Part shown: one piece after another, positions 408 through 6,242 of the stretch
Position numbering within the stretch: the stretch's first letter is position 1
Layout: each line of letters starts with the position of its first letter
Source: Clostridia bacterium
GTDB lineage: Bacteria > Bacillota > Clostridia > Oscillospirales > CAG-272
NCBI GenBank assembly: GCA_017958845.1
Contig: JAGDBW010000012.1
Span: forward strand, 1 to 12,572
DNA: 12,572 nucleotides
Direction: 5' to 3'
Program-made: the position numbers and the translations under genes
Notes under the pieces: generated by a model
What the model was told of the DNA's origin: nothing
Seen by the model: only the letters and a program-made list of their open reading frames with translations
Databases searched by the model: none

Positions 408-995
408 TCACTCGCGGAGCAATCCGGTTTTCCAGTCGACAGAGGGAAAGTGCCCGGTCAGATACACCTGCCAGCGCTCCGGTCCGACCCCGATCGGGTC
501 CTCATGGACGCCAAACGCGATCAGCACCCGCGCCTCGTCGGACCAGGCAAACATCGTATACCGATACGGAAAACGCCGGCGCGCGCCCGCGCCGAACCAC
601 GACGCGGAGTATCCCTCGATCTCTCTGAAGGTGATGTCCCCCAGCGTGACATAGTCGCTCCCGGTCAGTTTCATATGGGAGAGATAGTATTCTTTCGCGG
701 CCCGGTAGGTCTCCTCGTCCGCGTAGCGAAACCAGAGTATCGCGCTGACGTCCTTGTTGGTCCGGTCGCCGTGATCCGTATAGACAAACTCGCTGCCCAC
801 GGTCGGATAGGCGTCGGCAAAGCCCTCGGGGATCAGATAGCGGCACATCTTGTCATAGGTCTGATCGGTCCCAAAGCGATCGATCCCGCGCACGTTGATC
901 TCCCGATACGCCTGCCCCCCGCACGACGCGAGCGTGCAGATCACCAAAGACAGGCAAAGCGCGACGCAGAGCCGCCCGCAGCACTTGTTTTTCAT
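408..995 (-). CDS. Predicted lipoprotein of unknown function, paralogue of the next gene upstream
   Basis: 195 aa from ATG at 995. A start at GTG 1010 is possible, overlapping the upstream stop, but the ATG is preceded by a GAGGGGG ribosome binding site about 7 nt away. Residues 1-24 form a hydrophobic signal peptide ending in a lipobox, L-A-S-C25, so the protein should be lipid-anchored on the outer face of the membrane. The mature part matches its upstream neighbour in a series of blocks: CRYL-x-P, F-R-Y, Y-x-x-AK-x-YYL-x-HM-x-L, SDY, RFPY-x-x-TM-x-x-x-SDE, a-IAFG and GHFP-x-x-DW. I do not recognise a named family. The gene is second in a two-gene operon (11 nt gap), and a terminator follows at 352-390. 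Confidence 0.85.
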   Translation of the reverse strand: MKNKCCGRLCVALCLSLVICTLASCGGQAYREINVRGIDRFGTDQTYDKMCRYLIPEGFADAYPTVGSEFVYTDHGDRTNKDVSAILWFRYADEETYRAAKEYYLSHMKLTGSDYVTLGDITFREIEGYSASWFGAGARRRFPYRYTMFAWSDEARVLIAFGVHEDPIGVGPERWQVYLTGHFPSVDWKTGLLRE

Positions 996-1006
996 CACGA
1001 TCCCCC

Positions 1007-1699
1007 TCACTCCACCATCTTGGCCTCGTCCCAGTCAAAAAACGGAAAGTGCCCAAAGAGAAACACCGCCCAGTCGTCCGTGTCCACCACCAGAGGCCAA
1101 CGGACGTGCCCAAAGGCGACGATCGCCCGCTCTTCGTCCGAAAAGGCGGCCATGGTAAACGCGTACGGAAACCGGTGGAGAGCCACCTCCCGGGGGTCCA
1201 TGTCCGGCGTCGGCTCCTCGTATTTTTCAAAGAAACCGACGATCCGATAAAAACAAAAGGACGCGTAGTCAGAATAGGTCTCCTCGGCGAGGGTCATGTG
1301 ATCCAGATAGTACCGCTTGGCCTCCCGATAATCCTCTTCATTCTCAAAGCGAAAGCAAAACAGCGCCGTGTCGGCCTCGATCCGCGTGTTTCCAAAGCCG
1401 TGATACTCATAGTCCCATCGGTCGTTGTCATATTCGTCGACCCACACGCCCGGCTCGGTGTTATCCTCCCGGTTTTCTTTCTTCTCTTTCTCTTTTTCGA
1501 GCAGAAAGTCGAGAAAGTCGTCCGGCAGCAGATAGCGGCACAACAGCAGACTCGAGTCGGCGACGTACGACACCTTGACGCCCTGCCGGATCGTGTGATC
1601 CTGCATCACCGATCGACAGGAAGCGAGACACACGCTCCCCGCGAGCGCCGCGCACAAAAACAGACACGCGACCGTCCTCCGCAGCACTCCGCCTCTCAT
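1007..1699 (-). CDS. Predicted lipoprotein of unknown function, first of a tandem paralogous pair
   Basis: 230 aa. The start at ATG 1699 is chosen over the longer in-frame ATG at 1732 because a full GGAGG (1709-1713) lies 9 nt upstream of it. Residues 1-27 are a signal peptide ending in the lipobox L-A-S-C28. Compared with its paralogue it carries an extra charged insert, rich in Glu and Lys, around residues 65-95, which accounts for most of the length difference. Shared blocks include L-CRYL-x-P, the Y-x-x-AK-x-YYL-x-HM helix, SDY, RFPY-x-x-TM, SDEER and GHFP-x-x-DW. It is read from the promoter at 1792-1820. Function is unknown; an envelope sensor or binding role is only a guess from the anchor. 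Confidence 0.85.
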   Translation of the reverse strand: MRGGVLRRTVACLFLCAALAGSVCLASCRSVMQDHTIRQGVKVSYVADSSLLLCRYLLPDDFLDFLLEKEKEKKENREDNTEPGVWVDEYDNDRWDYEYHGFGNTRIEADTALFCFRFENEEDYREAKRYYLDHMTLAEETYSDYASFCFYRIVGFFEKYEEPTPDMDPREVALHRFPYAFTMAAFSDEERAIVAFGHVRWPLVVDTDDWAVFLFGHFPFFDWDEAKMVE

Positions 1700-1791
1700 C
1701 GACCATCGCCTCCTTTCAACCCATATATCCAAAAAAACAGCGCTCAGCGCCGCTCACGACCGTTTTTTGTCTTTGCGGCGCCGTCGATCCC

Positions 1792-1863: not shown

Positions 1864-1898
1864 AAAAAAACAGACCCGCGGCGTTCGCGCCGCGGGTC
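1864..1898 (-). terminator. Intrinsic terminator of the acyl-CoA ligase gene
   Basis: An 11-bp perfect stem (GACCCGCGGCG at 1873-1883, CGCCGCGGGTC at 1888-1898) with a 4-nt loop. On the minus strand it is followed after 2 nt by seven T (1870-1864). It lies 20 nt past the stop codon of the ligase gene. Confidence 0.9.
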
Positions 1899-1917: not shown

Positions 1918-3561
1918 TCAGCCGGTCGTCTCGGCTTCCACCAGACGCACCGCTCCGTACTTTTCGCGCAGTGCGTTTTTCTGTATCTTTCCGGTGGGGT
2001 TTCGCGGTATTTTGTCAAAGATGATCTTCTTCGGCCGCTTGTATCTCGGCAGACCCAGACAAAACTCGTCCATCTCCTCCGCGGTCGCCGTCGCGCCTTC
2101 TTTGAGCTGGATCACCGCGCAGGTGATCTCGCCCAGCCGCGCGTCGGGCAGACCGATCACGCCCACGTCCGAGACTTTCTCATGCGCACGCAGATAGTCC
2201 TCGATCTGCACGGGATAGATGTTTTCGCCCCCCGAGATGATCACGTCCTTTTTGCGGTCGACCAGGTAAATAAAGCCCGCCTCGTCGGTCCTGGCCATAT
2301 CGCCCGTCCTCAGCCACCCGTCCGGCGTCAGCACCTCGGCCGTGGCTTCGGGGTTCTTGTAGTAGCGGCGCATCACGCCGCGGCCGCGCAGGCACAGCTC
2401 GCCGACCTCGCCTTGACGCACCGGCGTCCCCTTCTCGTCGACGATCCTGACCTCCCAGCCGCAGCCGGGCACGCCGATCGCGCCGACTTTTTCGATATTC
2501 TCCACGCCCAGATGCACCGCGCCCGGTCCGATCGACTCGGACAGGCCGTAGTTGGTGTCATACGCGTGATGCGGAAAGACCCGCAGCCACCGCCGCACCA
2601 GCGACGGCGGCACCGGCTGCGCGCCGATGTGCATCAGCCGCCATTGGTCGAGACGATAGTCAGATAGGGAGAGTTTTCCCGACTCGATCCCGTCCAGGAT
2701 ATCCTGCGCCCACGGCACCAGCAGCCACACGATGGTCGCGCCCTCCTCCGAGGCGGCGCGCAGGATCCACTCCGGCTTGACGCCCCGCAGGATCACGGCG
2801 CGCCCGCCGGTCAAAAGAGACCCAAACCAGTGCATCTTGGCGCCCGTGTGATACAGGGGCGGGATGCAGAGAAAGACGTCGTCTTTTGTCTGCCCGTGGT
2901 GCGCCTGCTCGGTCTCGGCCGAGGCCATGAGAGCGTCGTGCGCGTGCAGGATCGCCTTGGGAAAGCCGGTCGTACCGGAAGAAAAGTAGATGGCCGCGTC
3001 GTCCTCGTCCGAGAGTTCCACCGGGGGAGGATCGGCCGAGCAGTAGCGGAGCAGCGACAGACAGTCTTCGGCAAAGTCGGGTACCACCGCCTCGCCGTCC
3101 CGCACAAAGAAGTAGGTACGCACCCGCATCCCGGCCCTGACTTCGCGGATCCGATCCACAAACTCCGGCCCGAACACCAGCACGTCCACGTCGGCCAGGT
3201 CCGCGCAGTAGGCGATCTCCTCGGCCGAAAAGCGAAAGTTCATCGGCACGGCGACCGCTCCCGTCTTGAGGATCCCAAAGTACAGCGGCAGCCAGTCGAG
3301 ACAGTTCATCAGCAGCAGCGCCACCTTGTCCCCGCGCCTGATCCCGCGCGAGAGCAAAAGATTGCCAAAGCGGTTGGCCCGATTGTCAAACTCGCGCCAG
3401 GTCATCTCCCGCCGATACTTGCGGGAGGAGGTAGACTGGATCAGACTGTACTCGCGCCAGGAGAGGGTCGCGTCGGGCTGGTCGGCGGGGTTGCGCTCGA
3501 CCAGCGCCACGTCCTCGGGCCACAGCCGGGCGTTGCGTTCAAGAAAAGCGGTGATAGGCAT
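1918..3561 (-). CDS. Acyl-CoA synthetase / AMP-forming carboxylate-CoA ligase
   Basis: 547 aa and full length for the ANL superfamily. It activates a carboxylic acid with ATP to an acyl-adenylate and passes it to CoA in the cytoplasm. Visible motifs in order: P-loop YFSSGTTGFPK (192-202), the A5 motif NYGLSE (337-342), LRTGD (417-421), the hinge DRKKD (435-439), GGENIYP (444-450) and the C-terminal PTGK with catalytic Lys525. The N-terminal stretch (about 31-60) reads as two WRE-type segments, SWREY then TWREF, as if the usual entry strand were preceded by an extra copy; I believe this occurs in a clostridial subfamily but could not check. The ATG at 3561 has an AAGGAG site 8 nt upstream. It is monocistronic, behind a T-box leader and ahead of a strong terminator. 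The substrate cannot be read from sequence; the leader suggests a branched-chain or aryl acid linked to amino-acid supply. Confidence 0.92.
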   Translation of the reverse strand: MPITAFLERNARLWPEDVALVERNPADQPDATLSWREYSLIQSTSSRKYRREMTWREFDNRANRFGNLLLSRGIRRGDKVALLLMNCLDWLPLYFGILKTGAVAVPMNFRFSAEEIAYCADLADVDVLVFGPEFVDRIREVRAGMRVRTYFFVRDGEAVVPDFAEDCLSLLRYCSADPPPVELSDEDDAAIYFSSGTTGFPKAILHAHDALMASAETEQAHHGQTKDDVFLCIPPLYHTGAKMHWFGSLLTGGRAVILRGVKPEWILRAASEEGATIVWLLVPWAQDILDGIESGKLSLSDYRLDQWRLMHIGAQPVPPSLVRRWLRVFPHHAYDTNYGLSESIGPGAVHLGVENIEKVGAIGVPGCGWEVRIVDEKGTPVRQGEVGELCLRGRGVMRRYYKNPEATAEVLTPDGWLRTGDMARTDEAGFIYLVDRKKDVIISGGENIYPVQIEDYLRAHEKVSDVGVIGLPDARLGEITCAVIQLKEGATATAEEMDEFCLGLPRYKRPKKIIFDKIPRNPTGKIQKNALREKYGAVRLVEAETTG

Positions 3562-3735
3562 ACAACAGACTCCTTGTCAAAAAAGATGGAAAAACGACCG
3601 TCCGCGTCCGTTTGCCGACGCCCGGCCAAAATCAACCGAAAAACAACCAAACCCCCGCCCGACACGCCCCGACAGAGGGGGGTCACGGCATCGACGGACC
3701 GGAAGACAGGGCAGGGCGCAAAGCCAAAAAGCCGC

Positions 3736-3794
3736 AAAAAAACGGCCGCGGGCACACCCGACAGCCGGCCTTGCCGCGCGGCCGCGGCCGCGCG
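3736..3794 (-). terminator. GC-rich palindrome and second terminator in the leader
   Basis: A perfect 20-nt palindrome of C and G lies at 3775-3794. Part of it, CGGCCGCG (3784-3777), can instead pair with CGCGGCCG (3750-3743), which is followed by seven T (3742-3736). The two folds exclude each other, as expected of an attenuator. Whether this is a second regulated terminator or a back-up is not clear from sequence alone. Confidence 0.55.
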
Positions 3795-3803
3795 AAAAAG
3801 AGC

Positions 3804-3836
3804 AAAAAAGCGCCGGGTACCACCATACCCTCGCGC
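3804..3836 (-). terminator. First terminator hairpin of the T-box leader, with the T-box core in it
   Basis: On the minus strand GCGC (3836-3833) and GGGTA (3830-3826) pair with TACCC (3819-3815) and GCGC (3813-3810) around a TGGTGG loop, with GA/G mismatches between the two helices, followed by six T (3809-3804). The hairpin uses part of the T-box core, so tRNA binding to TGGT and this hairpin should exclude each other. A competing pairing of GCGC 3813-3810 with GCGC 3793-3790 could form the antiterminator. Confidence 0.6.
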
Positions 3837-4006
3837 TGTCACGGGCGCGCCCGTCACGTCCTACGCGGACGCCCGACGGCGTCTTTCGGCGTGCTGCTCT
3901 CGGGAGGTAATTCTCGCGGCAAACGACGGACTGCTCGCACCAGCCGCAGTCTCTCTTTGCGTTGCGTGTGCCGGATACTGGGTTCCCGGTCGTGGCATTT
4001 TCGTTC

Positions 4007-4035
4007 ATTATAGCACCCCGGCCCGGGGTTGTCAA
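4007..4035 (-). promoter_or_regulatory. Consensus sigma-A promoter of the T-box/ligase transcript, with a palindrome in its spacer
   Basis: On the minus strand TTGACA (4035-4030) and TATAAT (4012-4007) are both perfect, with a 17-nt spacer. Transcription would begin near 4000, at the left foot of the T-box Stem I. The spacer contains a perfect interrupted palindrome, ACCCCGG-n-CCGGGGT, at 4015-4029. That could be a repressor site or simple GC-rich spacer. Confidence 0.88.
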
Positions 4036-4086
4036 TTTGTTTGCGTCATTATTTTTCCCCCGACGCGCATTTTCGCCAAAAAAAGA

Positions 4087-4115
4087 TTGCATTTCAAAAA
4101 TACTTGTGTTATACT
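4087..4115 (+). promoter_or_regulatory. Sigma-A promoter of the uL15-like gene
   Basis: TTGCAT (4087-4092) and TATACT (4110-4115) are separated by 17 nt in the AT-rich stretch before the gene. The start would be near 4122, giving a leader of about 50 nt. It is divergent from the ligase promoter 52 nt to the left. Confidence 0.75.
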
Positions 4116-4172
4116 ACATGTGTCAAAATATATCCGATTGCAGGCGTCCCGCCGAGAAAGGAAAGGTGTCCC

Positions 4173-4592
4173 ATGTCCGCCAAAAATTCCGAAGCCGTCT
4201 TCTACCCCATCCCCTCCGGCAAAAACCAGCTGGTCTCTTTCAATGAGCCCGAAGTCCTCCACACCTCTCTCCGTCCCTCCGGCGCGACCAAAAAGAATCT
4301 GCCGGAGATGGAACGCCGCCGCAGCATCATTCGCCTCAGTACCGGCGGGATCAACCGCGCCAGAGTCGCCAAACTCAAACTCGGAAAGCTCTGCTCCGTC
4401 TTCGCCGACCGCTCGTACGTCAGCCTCGACAGCCTCAAGATCGTGGGCCTCGTCCCGCCCGACACGACCTACCTCACTGTCGTCGCAGGCGGAAAGCTCG
4501 ACCGTCGCCTCATGGTCGAGGCCAACGAGTTTTCCAAACGCGCCACGCGCATGCTCGCCCTGACCGGCGGCCGCGCCATCGAGCTGTACTGA
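4173..4592 (+). CDS. uL15-family ribosomal protein paralogue
   Basis: 139 aa from ATG 4173, with an AAAGG-type site 6-10 nt upstream. Residues about 82-138 match the C-terminal half of bacterial L15: SLDSLKxxGLV, then V-x-x-GGKLD-x-x-L-x-VEANEFSK, a helix, and a closing GG-x-A-IEL strand. The glycine- and lysine-rich N-terminal arm that anchors normal L15 in the large subunit is missing. In its place is a shorter Pro/Ser/Asn-rich start and a basic RRRSIIRLSTGG segment (48-59). It stands alone with its own promoter and terminator, not in a ribosomal-protein operon. Whether it sits on ribosomes is unknown; it could be a stand-by paralogue or an RNA-binding relative. Confidence 0.7.
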   Translation: MSAKNSEAVFYPIPSGKNQLVSFNEPEVLHTSLRPSGATKKNLPEMERRRSIIRLSTGGINRARVAKLKLGKLCSVFADRSYVSLDSLKIVGLVPPDTTYLTVVAGGKLDRRLMVEANEFSKRATRMLALTGGRAIELY

Positions 4593-4932: not shown

Positions 4933-4965
4933 AAATTGCGTCACACGGACCCATCGGAGAAAGCC

Positions 4966-5376
4966 ATGATCTACAAGACCGAACAAAACCAAAAACTCAT
5001 CGCCTACCTGCGCTCCGCCGCCTCTCAGCTGCCCATGCAGACCATCGTCGCGGACATGAAGGCGCAGGGAGTCGCCGAGAGCACCACCTACCGCCTGATG
5101 CGCGAGCTGGTCGAGGCGGGCGAGGTGCGCCGCTTCGTCACGGGGCACAACCGCCGTTTCTACTACCAGGCCGTGCGCGACGCCGCCTGCGGACGCCACA
5201 TGCACCTCAAATGCGTCAAATGCGGAAAGCTCGTGCACCTCAGCCCCTGCGTGTCCGACTTTATCGAGCGGCAGGTCCTGGCGGCCAACCGCTTTGTCAT
5301 CGACGAGGGCATGACCCTCCTGCTCGGCCGCTGCCGCGCCTGCAGCCGGCCCGGAGAAGAGGAGGCACGCCCGTGA
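4966..5376 (+). CDS. Fur-family metal-responsive transcriptional regulator
   Basis: 136 aa from ATG 4966 (GGAGA 6 nt upstream; the in-frame TTG at 4936 lies across the right arm and flank of the operator and is rejected). The N-terminal winged helix is visible, with the recognition helix around STTYRLMRELVEAG (39-52). The C-terminal metal and dimer domain has H78-M-H80, the C83-V-K-C86 pair and a second C123-R-A-C126 pair. Together these cysteines form the structural zinc site of the family. Length fits Fur/Zur (about 135-150 aa). Its stop overlaps the GTG start of the permease, so the two are translationally coupled. Which metal is sensed (Zn, Fe, Mn) cannot be decided; coupling to a heavy-metal permease points to Zn- or Mn-type control. 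Confidence 0.88.
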   Translation: MIYKTEQNQKLIAYLRSAASQLPMQTIVADMKAQGVAESTTYRLMRELVEAGEVRRFVTGHNRRFYYQAVRDAACGRHMHLKCVKCGKLVHLSPCVSDFIERQVLAANRFVIDEGMTLLLGRCRACSRPGEEEARP

Positions 5377-6242
5377 TCCGTCAGATCTGCGAGGTCATCC
5401 TCGACGCCCTGCTCGATACCGCCAAACTCCTGCCGTTCCTCTTTCTCACCTACCTTTTGCTCGAATGGATCGAACACCGCGCGGCCGAGCGTATGCAGCG
5501 CTTTCTCAGCCGGGCGGGACACTTCGGCCCCGCCATCGGCGCCGGGCTGGGCGTCGTTCCGCAGTGCGGCTTTTCCGCCGCCGCCGCGGGCCTCTACTCC
5601 GCGCGCGTCATATCCGTGGGGACGCTCGCGGCCGTCTTTCTCTCCACCTCCGACGAGATGCTGCCGGTGATGATCGCGGGGCGCATGTCCCCCCGCGTGA
5701 TTCTCATCACCCTGGGGCTGAAGTGCGCCGTTGCCCTCCTCGTCGGCTACGCCCTCCATCTTCTCCACCCCCTCTTTTCGAGAAAAAATGAGGGGGGTCA
5801 GGAGCATATCCACGACATTTGCACCGACGAACACTGCCATTGTGAGCGCGGGATATGGCGTGGGGCGCTGCACCATACGCTCCACATCGCCTGGCTCGTT
5901 TTGGTCGTCAATCTGCTGCTCGGAGCGCTTTTCGAGTGGGTCGGCGCCGCGCGGATCACGGCGCTGCTCGCCCACCACGGACTGCTGACCTACCTCGCCG
6001 CGGGCCTCGTCGGCCTGATACCCAACTGCGCCGCCTCGGTGGTACTCACCGAGCTCTACGTCGACGGCGTTTTGCCCTTCGGCGCCATGCTGGCGGGGCT
6101 GCTGCCCGGCGCGGGCGCGGGTATACTGGTGCTCCTACGCACCAACCGACCGGTCCGCCGCTCCCTTTTGATGCTCGCCTTTCTGCTCGCGGTCGGGATC
6201 TCGGCCGGCCTGCTCGCCTCCCTCGTCTTTCCGTCCCTGTGA
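5373..6242 (+). CDS. Polytopic permease, ArsP_2 / putative heavy-metal exporter family
   Basis: 289 aa from GTG 5373, which overlaps the regulator stop by 4 nt (GTGA); GGAGG at 5361-5365 supports it. It has about eight to ten hydrophobic segments in two related halves. Half one carries VPQCGFSAA (62-70) and STSDEMLPV (91-99); half two carries IPNCAASVVLTELY (216-229) and LLPGAGAGILVL (243-254). The paired PQCG/PNCA motifs and the SDE motif are those I associate with the putative 10-TM heavy-metal exporter family, often labelled arsenic efflux protein or manganese transporter. Between the halves lies a His/Cys-rich loop (144-158: H145, H147, C150, H154, C155, H156, C157), a likely metal-binding site. 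Direction and metal are not shown by the sequence; I see no clear terminator after it. Confidence 0.8.
   Translation: MIRQICEVILDALLDTAKLLPFLFLTYLLLEWIEHRAAERMQRFLSRAGHFGPAIGAGLGVVPQCGFSAAAAGLYSARVISVGTLAAVFLSTSDEMLPVMIAGRMSPRVILITLGLKCAVALLVGYALHLLHPLFSRKNEGGQEHIHDICTDEHCHCERGIWRGALHHTLHIAWLVLVVNLLLGALFEWVGAARITALLAHHGLLTYLAAGLVGLIPNCAASVVLTELYVDGVLPFGAMLAGLLPGAGAGILVLLRTNRPVRRSLLMLAFLLAVGISAGLLASLVFPSL

What the first reader, a model, noticed from the sequence alone, without database searches (positions are those of the whole stretch)
1918..4035. A T-box riboswitch controlling a single acyl-CoA ligase
T-boxes normally control aminoacyl-tRNA synthetase, amino-acid biosynthesis or transporter genes. 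Here the leader's Stem I (AGTA/GAA S-turn, GGCTGGTGCGA apical loop, AGAGAG) and T-box core precede one AMP-forming carboxylate-CoA ligase, with a strong terminator behind it. A sensible role is amino-acid rebuilding from scavenged acids: activation to the CoA ester, then reductive carboxylation by a ferredoxin oxidoreductase encoded elsewhere. That would be isovalerate for leucine if the specifier is UUA, or 4-hydroxyphenylacetate for tyrosine if it is UAC.
Basis: partly seen in the sequence, partly recalled or inferred. Interest (0 to 1): 0.8.

Follow-up and report, generated by a model that had tools for sequence, protein, structure and literature searches.

The report
Tyrosine-tRNA switch on arylacetate ligase
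A gut or rumen bacterium seems to turn on an enzyme that recycles aromatic acids into tyrosine when its tyrosine tRNA runs empty, using an RNA switch that many of its relatives also place before the same gene.

Summary
The minus strand carries a T-box leader (Rfam 58.4 bits, E 7.7e-11, under the cutoff of 93; 53.4 bits, E 4.6e-12, to a Stem I model built without it), a perfect sigma-70 promoter, one AMP-forming acyl-CoA ligase and a terminator. It is not an oddity: 35 of 135 orthologous loci read carry a T-box ahead of this gene, and I read all 35 specifiers as UAC (29) or UUC (6), i.e. Tyr or Phe. The window reads GAA-U-UAC (Tyr); the one-base offset also occurs in valS, pheS and thrS leaders, so Leu (UUA) is unlikely. 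In 65 of 135 loci iorA (indolepyruvate:ferredoxin oxidoreductase) follows the ligase, often with a symporter, iorB and paaK; some iorA and paaK genes have Phe T-boxes of their own. Best reading: starvation-induced salvage of arylacetates, probably 4-hydroxyphenylacetate, to Tyr/Phe by reductive carboxylation. In the window's own genome iorA, iorB and paaK lie on other contigs and no T-box was found before them. Its antiterminator is atypical and Stem III seems missing. Substrate, flux and tRNA response are untested. Two key T-box surveys could not be read, so priority is open.

The parts
4007..4035 (-). sigma-70 promoter TTGACA-N17-TATAAT, TG before -10
   Evidence: 12 of 12 matches; 4 promoter-like sites in the region against 0.5 per shuffle
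3795..4002 (-). T-box leader, whole Rfam match
   Evidence: RF00230 58.4 bits, E 7.7e-11
3892..4005 (-). Stem I (AGTA, AGAGAG, GGTGCGA loop, GAA)
   Evidence: model from 23 relatives without the window, 53.4 bits, E 4.6e-12
3907..3909 (-). specifier UAC (Tyr), one extra U (3910) after GAA (3913-3911)
   Evidence: aligned with UAC/UUC of relatives; offset calibrated
3816..3822 (-). T-box sequence UGGUACC; UGGU would pair a discriminator A
   Evidence: pairing rule from general T-box knowledge
3804..3830 (-). hairpin GGGTAT-GGTG-GTACCC over the T-box sequence, then GGCGC and T6: possible first terminator
   Evidence: -15.1 kcal/mol with flanking GCGC pairs
3736..3770 (-). GGCCG...CGGCCG-T7 hairpin, read by eye as the likely attenuator (the scan lists a different stem here, 3751-3732); its UGUGCCC can pair with GGGUAUG (3830-3824), an antiterminator-like helix that leaves UGGUACC unpaired
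   Evidence: single-sequence folds
3570..3575 (-). ribosome binding site AAGGAG
   Evidence: by eye
1918..3561 (-). AMP-forming acyl-CoA ligase, 547 aa (proposed arylacetate-, probably 4-hydroxyphenylacetate-CoA ligase)
   Evidence: function inferred from context
1873..1898 (-). terminator after the ligase

Best explanation
A transcription-attenuating T-box leader specific for tRNA-Tyr controls an acyl-CoA ligase that makes an arylacetyl-CoA, most likely 4-hydroxyphenylacetyl-CoA. When tRNA-Tyr is uncharged it binds Stem I (UAC with anticodon GUA) and the UGGU sequence, an antiterminator forms and the ligase is made. The CoA ester is then carboxylated with reduced ferredoxin by IorAB to the 2-oxo acid and transaminated to Tyr (or Phe). 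Shown: a T-box leader by sequence and covariance, its recurrence ahead of this gene, Tyr/Phe specifiers in the leaders found, linkage to iorAB/paaK/symporter in relatives, and iorA, iorB and a PaaK homologue in the window's own genome on other contigs. Inferred: tRNA response, antiterminator switching in this divergent copy, substrate and direction of flux.
For: T-box by two models. T-box on the same strand ahead of the ligase in 35 of 135 loci, window included, against 1-13 T-boxes per relative genome. Specifiers read by eye: UAC 29, UUC 6 of 35; Tyr/Phe differ within one genus: L057 UUC / L061 UAC, and L071 UUC / L066, L067, L174 UAC. The Stem I model's seed leaders were picked with a pattern that asks for T-N(1-2)-C, so I checked with the general Rfam model: on 76 of the 135 loci (15) it found four ligase T-boxes (L034, L035, L038, L039), all UAC or UUC, and none with another specifier. 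In 80 named loci 12 have it, all UAC; those records partly repeat the 135. GAA-N-codon offset in leaders of identified valS, pheS and thrS genes. iorA downstream in 65 of 135: 17 of 35 with T-box, 48 of 100 without. Order ligase-(symporter)-iorA-iorB-paaK. UUC T-boxes before iorA (L068, L075) and before paaK (L034). Own genome: iorA over cutoff, iorB, a PaaK homologue at 512.6 bits, under its cutoff of 646.3. Two genomes called 100% complete with T-box-ligase-iorAB (G348, G384) show no prephenate dehydratase. A Geobacter genome paper lists iorAB-paaK under tryptophan in a table of predicted regulatory RNA elements of biosynthetic operons, not as a T-box (passages of PMC2700814).
Against: Rfam gathering score not reached. 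The window's antiterminator is not the canonical one and Stem III seems missing. No T-box was found before iorAB or paaK in its own genome. 100 of 135 loci show no T-box in the stretch read, 72 of them also by the general Rfam model. iorA linkage is no commoner with the T-box (17 of 35) than without (48 of 100). Most relatives asked also have de novo genes (prephenate dehydratase in 33 of 40, dehydrogenase in 35 of 40, 34 over cutoff); neither was found in the window's incomplete genome. tRNA-Tyr was not recovered there: ARAGORN named 5 of 6 tRNA candidates, two of them Leu, one with anticodon TAA. Sequence places the ligase nearest to fatty-acyl-CoA synthetases. IOR with a ligase can also run in the oxidative direction (general knowledge).
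Confidence: 0.78

Rival explanations
1. The specifier is UUA (Leu), read directly after GAA, and the ligase activates isovalerate for leucine.
For: GAA is followed by UUA in the window, and the own valS leader reads GAA-GUC with no spacer. A tRNA-Leu with anticodon TAA is in the genome.
Against: The other 34 ligase leaders read UAC or UUC. L066 GAATTACC against L174 GAATACC, same genus, shows a one-base insertion before UAC; A-insertions (GAAATAC) occur in L126 and L154. Leaders of identified valS (L003, L020, L025), pheS (L005) and thrS (L015) genes need a one-base spacer. UUA is 1% of Leu specifiers and UAC 99% of Tyr specifiers in TBDB (passages of PMC7778990).
Confidence: 0.07
2. The leader is a decayed T-box in this genome and the ligase is no longer controlled by tRNA.
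For: Core GGGTATGG-TGGTACC-CGGCGC lacks the GAGG/CCTC-type helix of the relatives printed; Stem III seems missing; the T-box sequence lies in a stable hairpin followed by U6. The protein has a long end branch (0.32).
Against: Stem I, specifier, promoter, UGGU and downstream T-run hairpins are kept; an antiterminator-like fold with UGGUACC unpaired exists (-34.2 kcal/mol over 84 nt).
Confidence: 0.2
3. The pathway runs oxidatively (aromatic amino-acid fermentation), or the ligase serves fatty or other acids, and the T-box is incidental.
For: IOR is reversible (general knowledge). A C. difficile paper lists an aromatic aminotransferase-iorAB-butK operon under SigL (passage of PMC7438776). Nearest named families are fatty-acyl ligases. 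About half of the loci without a T-box also have iorA (48 of 100).
Against: T-boxes raise expression when the amino acid is short, the wrong sign for catabolism. Tyr/Phe specifiers in 35 of 35 ligase leaders, and separate Phe T-boxes on iorA and paaK.
Confidence: 0.13

Closest known systems
T-box riboswitch, Rfam RF00230 (tyrS-type, UAC specifier)
   Same: Stem I motifs, UAC specifier, UGGU, T-run hairpins, consensus promoter
   Different: Target is not a synthetase, classical biosynthesis gene or amino-acid transporter; extra U after GAA; no canonical antiterminator and apparently no Stem III in this copy
Arylacetate reductive carboxylation (aryl-CoA ligase + indolepyruvate:ferredoxin oxidoreductase), known from rumen bacteria and methanogens (recalled, no call)
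   Same: Ligase with iorA/iorB and paaK in relatives; same parts in the own genome
   Different: Here the ligase is under a Tyr/Phe T-box and is not PaaK; direction not shown
Geobacter iorAB-paaK operon with a predicted regulatory RNA element, filed under tryptophan (passages of PMC2700814)
   Same: Same enzyme pair seen as amino-acid biosynthesis under leader control
   Different: Not marked as a T-box there, assigned to Trp, no second ligase named in the passages seen
Phenylacetate-CoA ligase PaaK (TIGR02155)
   Same: Same superfamily and, in some relatives, same cluster; a paaK has its own Phe T-box in L034
   Different: The window's ligase scores only 22.7 bits to TIGR02155 (cutoff 646.3)
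FadD13-like fatty-acyl-CoA synthetase (3r44) and subfamily NF004837
   Same: Best solved and curated relatives
   Different: 403.7 bits against a subfamily cutoff of 476; gene context is aromatic amino acids, not fatty acids

Membership tests
T-box riboswitch (RF00230) | significant covariance-model match | tested here: met
   58.4 bits, E 7.7e-11; own-family Stem I model 53.4 bits, E 4.6e-12
T-box riboswitch (RF00230) | Rfam gathering score of 93 bits (a curation threshold) | tested here: not met
   58.4 bits; the own valS leader also stays under it at 59.6
T-box riboswitch (RF00230) | Stem I motifs AGTA/GAA, AGAGAG, GGTG loop | tested here: met
T-box riboswitch (RF00230) | specifier matching the function of the regulated gene | tested here: met
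   UAC/UUC in 35 of 35 ligase leaders, by eye; spacer calibrated; the match to function rests on the proposed pathway
T-box riboswitch (RF00230) | antiterminator helix with UGGN bulge exclusive with a terminator | tested here: inconclusive
   canonical in relatives; atypical in the window
T-box riboswitch (RF00230) | response to uncharged cognate tRNA | not testable with these tools
   needs in vitro transcription or a reporter
ANL superfamily AMP-forming ligase | AMP-binding domains and motifs | tested here: met
   PF00501, PF13193; SSGTTGFPK, YGLSE, TGDMARTDEAGF, NPTGK in the translation (motif meaning recalled)
PaaK phenylacetate-CoA ligase | TIGR02155 cutoff | tested here: not met
   22.7 of 646.3 bits
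Arylacetate salvage with IOR | ligase linked to iorAB | tested here: met
   in relatives: iorA downstream in 65 of 135 loci; in the own genome iorA and iorB are present but on another contig
Arylacetate salvage with IOR | activity on arylacetates | not testable with these tools
   needs enzyme assay

The most novel reading that the evidence does not exclude
A tRNA-gated acid-salvage regulon of gut anaerobes: Tyr T-boxes switch on a new, non-PaaK 4-hydroxyphenylacetate-CoA ligase and its uptake symporter, Phe T-boxes switch on IorAB and PaaK, so that cells starved for an aromatic amino acid rebuild it from arylacetates released by neighbours. The Tyr/Phe specifier is swapped between close species by one base.
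Probability: 0.5. Interest if true: 0.75.

Novelty: new variant of a known kind. Interest (0 to 1): 0.63.

Why it matters
It would add an acid-salvage route to the known T-box targets (synthetases, biosynthesis, transporters) and give a regulatory argument for the direction of indolepyruvate:ferredoxin oxidoreductase in gut and rumen anaerobes. It would assign a probable substrate to a group of ligases whose nearest named families are fatty-acyl ligases. It would also make testable the old view that rumen bacteria make Phe and Tyr from phenylacetate and 4-hydroxyphenylacetate (recalled).

Tried and rejected
Leu/isovalerate: rejected on specifier comparison. PaaK identity: rejected. Chance T-box: rejected. 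Folding the whole leader gave z -0.93, not informative. The CRISPR-DR20 match at 5530-5570 (E 0.16) was taken as chance. A search for tRNA-Tyr in the own genome was inconclusive. Structure prediction and pocket modelling were not run: I judged that they would not separate substrates inside this superfamily. The pattern count of T-boxes (33 of 135) was replaced by the model count (35 of 135).

Rows dropped: of 147 places, 124 were read (partial genes, two frames with a stop, a second G289 copy and some weaker hits were left out), plus 11 places found only, making 135. The three partial loci L049-L051 were scanned with Rfam (no T-box) but not counted. L009, a further Tyr T-box before a ligase fragment (55% over 141 aa), is outside the 135. 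L101 has a T-box core cut off by its contig end and is counted as without. At most 1.5 kb upstream was read and five loci had under 600 bases with no T-box core, so 35 is a lower bound. In the named set L209 (AAC-like specifier, 2.9 kb before the ligase), L217 (UGG) and L187 (no ligase downstream) were not counted. Two of the 35 (L070, L075) have CAA instead of GAA. The general Rfam model was run on 76 of the 135 loci besides the window itself, not on the others.

Papers: passages of PMC7778990 (plus outline), PMC6167468, PMC3766115, PMC7438776, PMC11477304, PMC2916919, PMC2494555 and PMC2700814; search listings only for the rest. In these passages T-box targets are synthetases, biosynthesis and transport (and one ACT-domain protein). 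Searches with T-box plus CoA ligase/specifier, indolepyruvate/ferredoxin oxidoreductase, or phenylacetate gave 0, 0 and 1 unrelated paper; T-box/tRNA/paaK gave 2, of which one is the Geobacter paper whose table lists iorAB-paaK under tryptophan without calling it a T-box. The surveys PMC2271356 and PMC2650889 are not held, so an earlier report there is not excluded.

Full report
What is there. On the minus strand a perfect promoter (4035-4007) is followed by a T-box leader (4002-3795, RF00230, 58.4 bits, E 7.7e-11), two possible attenuator hairpins with T-runs, a ribosome binding site and a 547-aa AMP-forming ligase (3561-1918), closed by an 11-pair terminator (1898-1873). The Rfam score is under the curated cutoff of 93. 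A Stem I model built from 23 relatives without the window finds it at 53.4 bits, E 4.6e-12, so the leader is real. The genome (67% complete, 228 contigs) shows one other T-box, before valS.

How widespread. Orthologues of the ligase (about 60-73% identical) occur in 146 of 394 genomes drawn from the order. I read 135 loci. With the Stem I model, 34 of the 134 others and the window have a T-box on the ligase strand upstream. The general Rfam T-box model was run on 76 of the 135: it found the same four ligase leaders as the Stem I model among the 15, and none ahead of the ligase in 61 loci that the Stem I model calls empty (one divergent T-box there, in L121, faces iorA). On a quick tree of 134 proteins the T-box label needs 16 changes against a mean of 31 in shuffles; the window groups with L034 and L081, both with Tyr T-boxes, and a supported clade of 49 around it has 28 with T-box. 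In 80 named loci, many from rumen and gut assemblies and partly the same genomes, 12 show a T-box before the ligase or before symporter-ligase.

Specifier. I read all 35 leaders as UAC (29) or UUC (6) after GAA, or CAA in two. Four of them (window, L066, L071, L081) have one extra U and two (L126, L154) an extra A. The seed leaders of the model were picked with a pattern asking for T-N(1-2)-C, which favours such codons; the general Rfam scans above, which have no such bias, found no ligase T-box with another specifier. Within one genus L174 and L067 read GAATACC, L066 GAATTACC and L071 GAATTTCC: an insertion before UAC or UUC. The offset is ordinary: leaders of genes that NCBIfam names valS (L003, L020, L025), pheS (L005) and thrS (L015) need the one-base spacer to read their amino acid, two aspS leaders (L014, L021) read AAC with it, while tyrS (L029) and proS (L032) need none. 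In TBDB UAC makes 99% of Tyr specifiers and UUA 1% of Leu. The window is therefore read as Tyr. Against this, the own valS leader has no spacer, tRNA-Leu(TAA) is present in the genome and tRNA-Tyr was not recovered from it.

Context. iorA lies on the same strand within 2.5 kb downstream in 65 of 135 loci (only 1.5 kb read in 16 of them): 17 of 35 with T-box and 48 of 100 without. Fuller flanks show ligase-(symporter)-iorA-iorB-paaK. In L068 and L075 a Tyr T-box heads ligase-symporter and a Phe T-box heads iorA; in L034 a Tyr T-box heads the ligase and a Phe T-box a paaK; in L121 and L239 a leader that I read as AU-UUC-A heads iorA. The own genome has iorA over cutoff, iorB and a PaaK homologue whose contig begins with the end of an iorB-like gene. 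These lie on other contigs than the ligase, and no T-box was found before them. Prephenate dehydratase was found in 33 and dehydrogenase in 35 of 40 genomes asked for (33 with T-box, 7 without). The salvage route is thus mostly an addition, though two T-box genomes called 100% complete (G348, G384) have no dehydratase hit.

Mechanism. T-boxes let transcription through when the matching tRNA is uncharged (general knowledge; also in the passages). Tyr/Phe control of ligase, symporter, IorAB and PaaK fits starvation-induced rebuilding of Tyr/Phe from arylacetates: uptake, CoA ester, reductive carboxylation, transamination. The step order is inference from known enzyme chemistry. Nothing here measures substrate or flux.

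What is odd in this copy. The relatives printed have GAGG-TGGTACC-RCG...CCTC or close variants, with a hairpin before it. The window has GGGTATGG-TGGTACC-CGGCGC only 68 nt after Stem I, against 77 nt or more in the T-box-ligase relatives where the core pattern was found. It can fold as a hairpin over the T-box sequence before U6, or as GGGUAUG with UGUGCCC of the next hairpin, leaving UGGUACC unpaired. These are single-sequence folds. Decay (about 0.2) is not excluded.

Novelty. T-box leaders and IOR-based salvage are each known. Their union, and this ligase as a T-box target, was not met in the papers that could be searched. The nearest is a table entry for Geobacter that puts iorAB-paaK under tryptophan with a predicted RNA element other than a T-box. 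Two central surveys were not held.

Noticed in passing
window 4029-4592 (+): Frame divergent from the leader whose C-terminal part weakly matches ribosomal L15/L18e (PF00828, 25.3 bits).
   Followed up: no
L039 975-1397 (-): Five tandem Gut-1-like RNA matches (RF01706, under cutoff) between the T-box and the ligase start.
   Followed up: no
L093 and L121: A YerC/YecD TrpR-related gene lies between ligase and iorA (L093) and, read by eye from the DNA, between a Phe-type T-box and iorA (L121): a possible second layer of aromatic amino-acid control.
   Followed up: partly
window 4936-6242 (+): Fur-family regulator followed by an arsenic-efflux-type permease (NF037962, 280.6 bits).
   Followed up: no
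window 408-1732 (-): Two adjacent ORFs without Pfam match behind an 11-of-12 promoter at 1820-1792.
   Followed up: no
G000:C71 and G000:C189: Two contigs carry near-identical but not identical iorB ends: strain variation or two copies.
   Followed up: no
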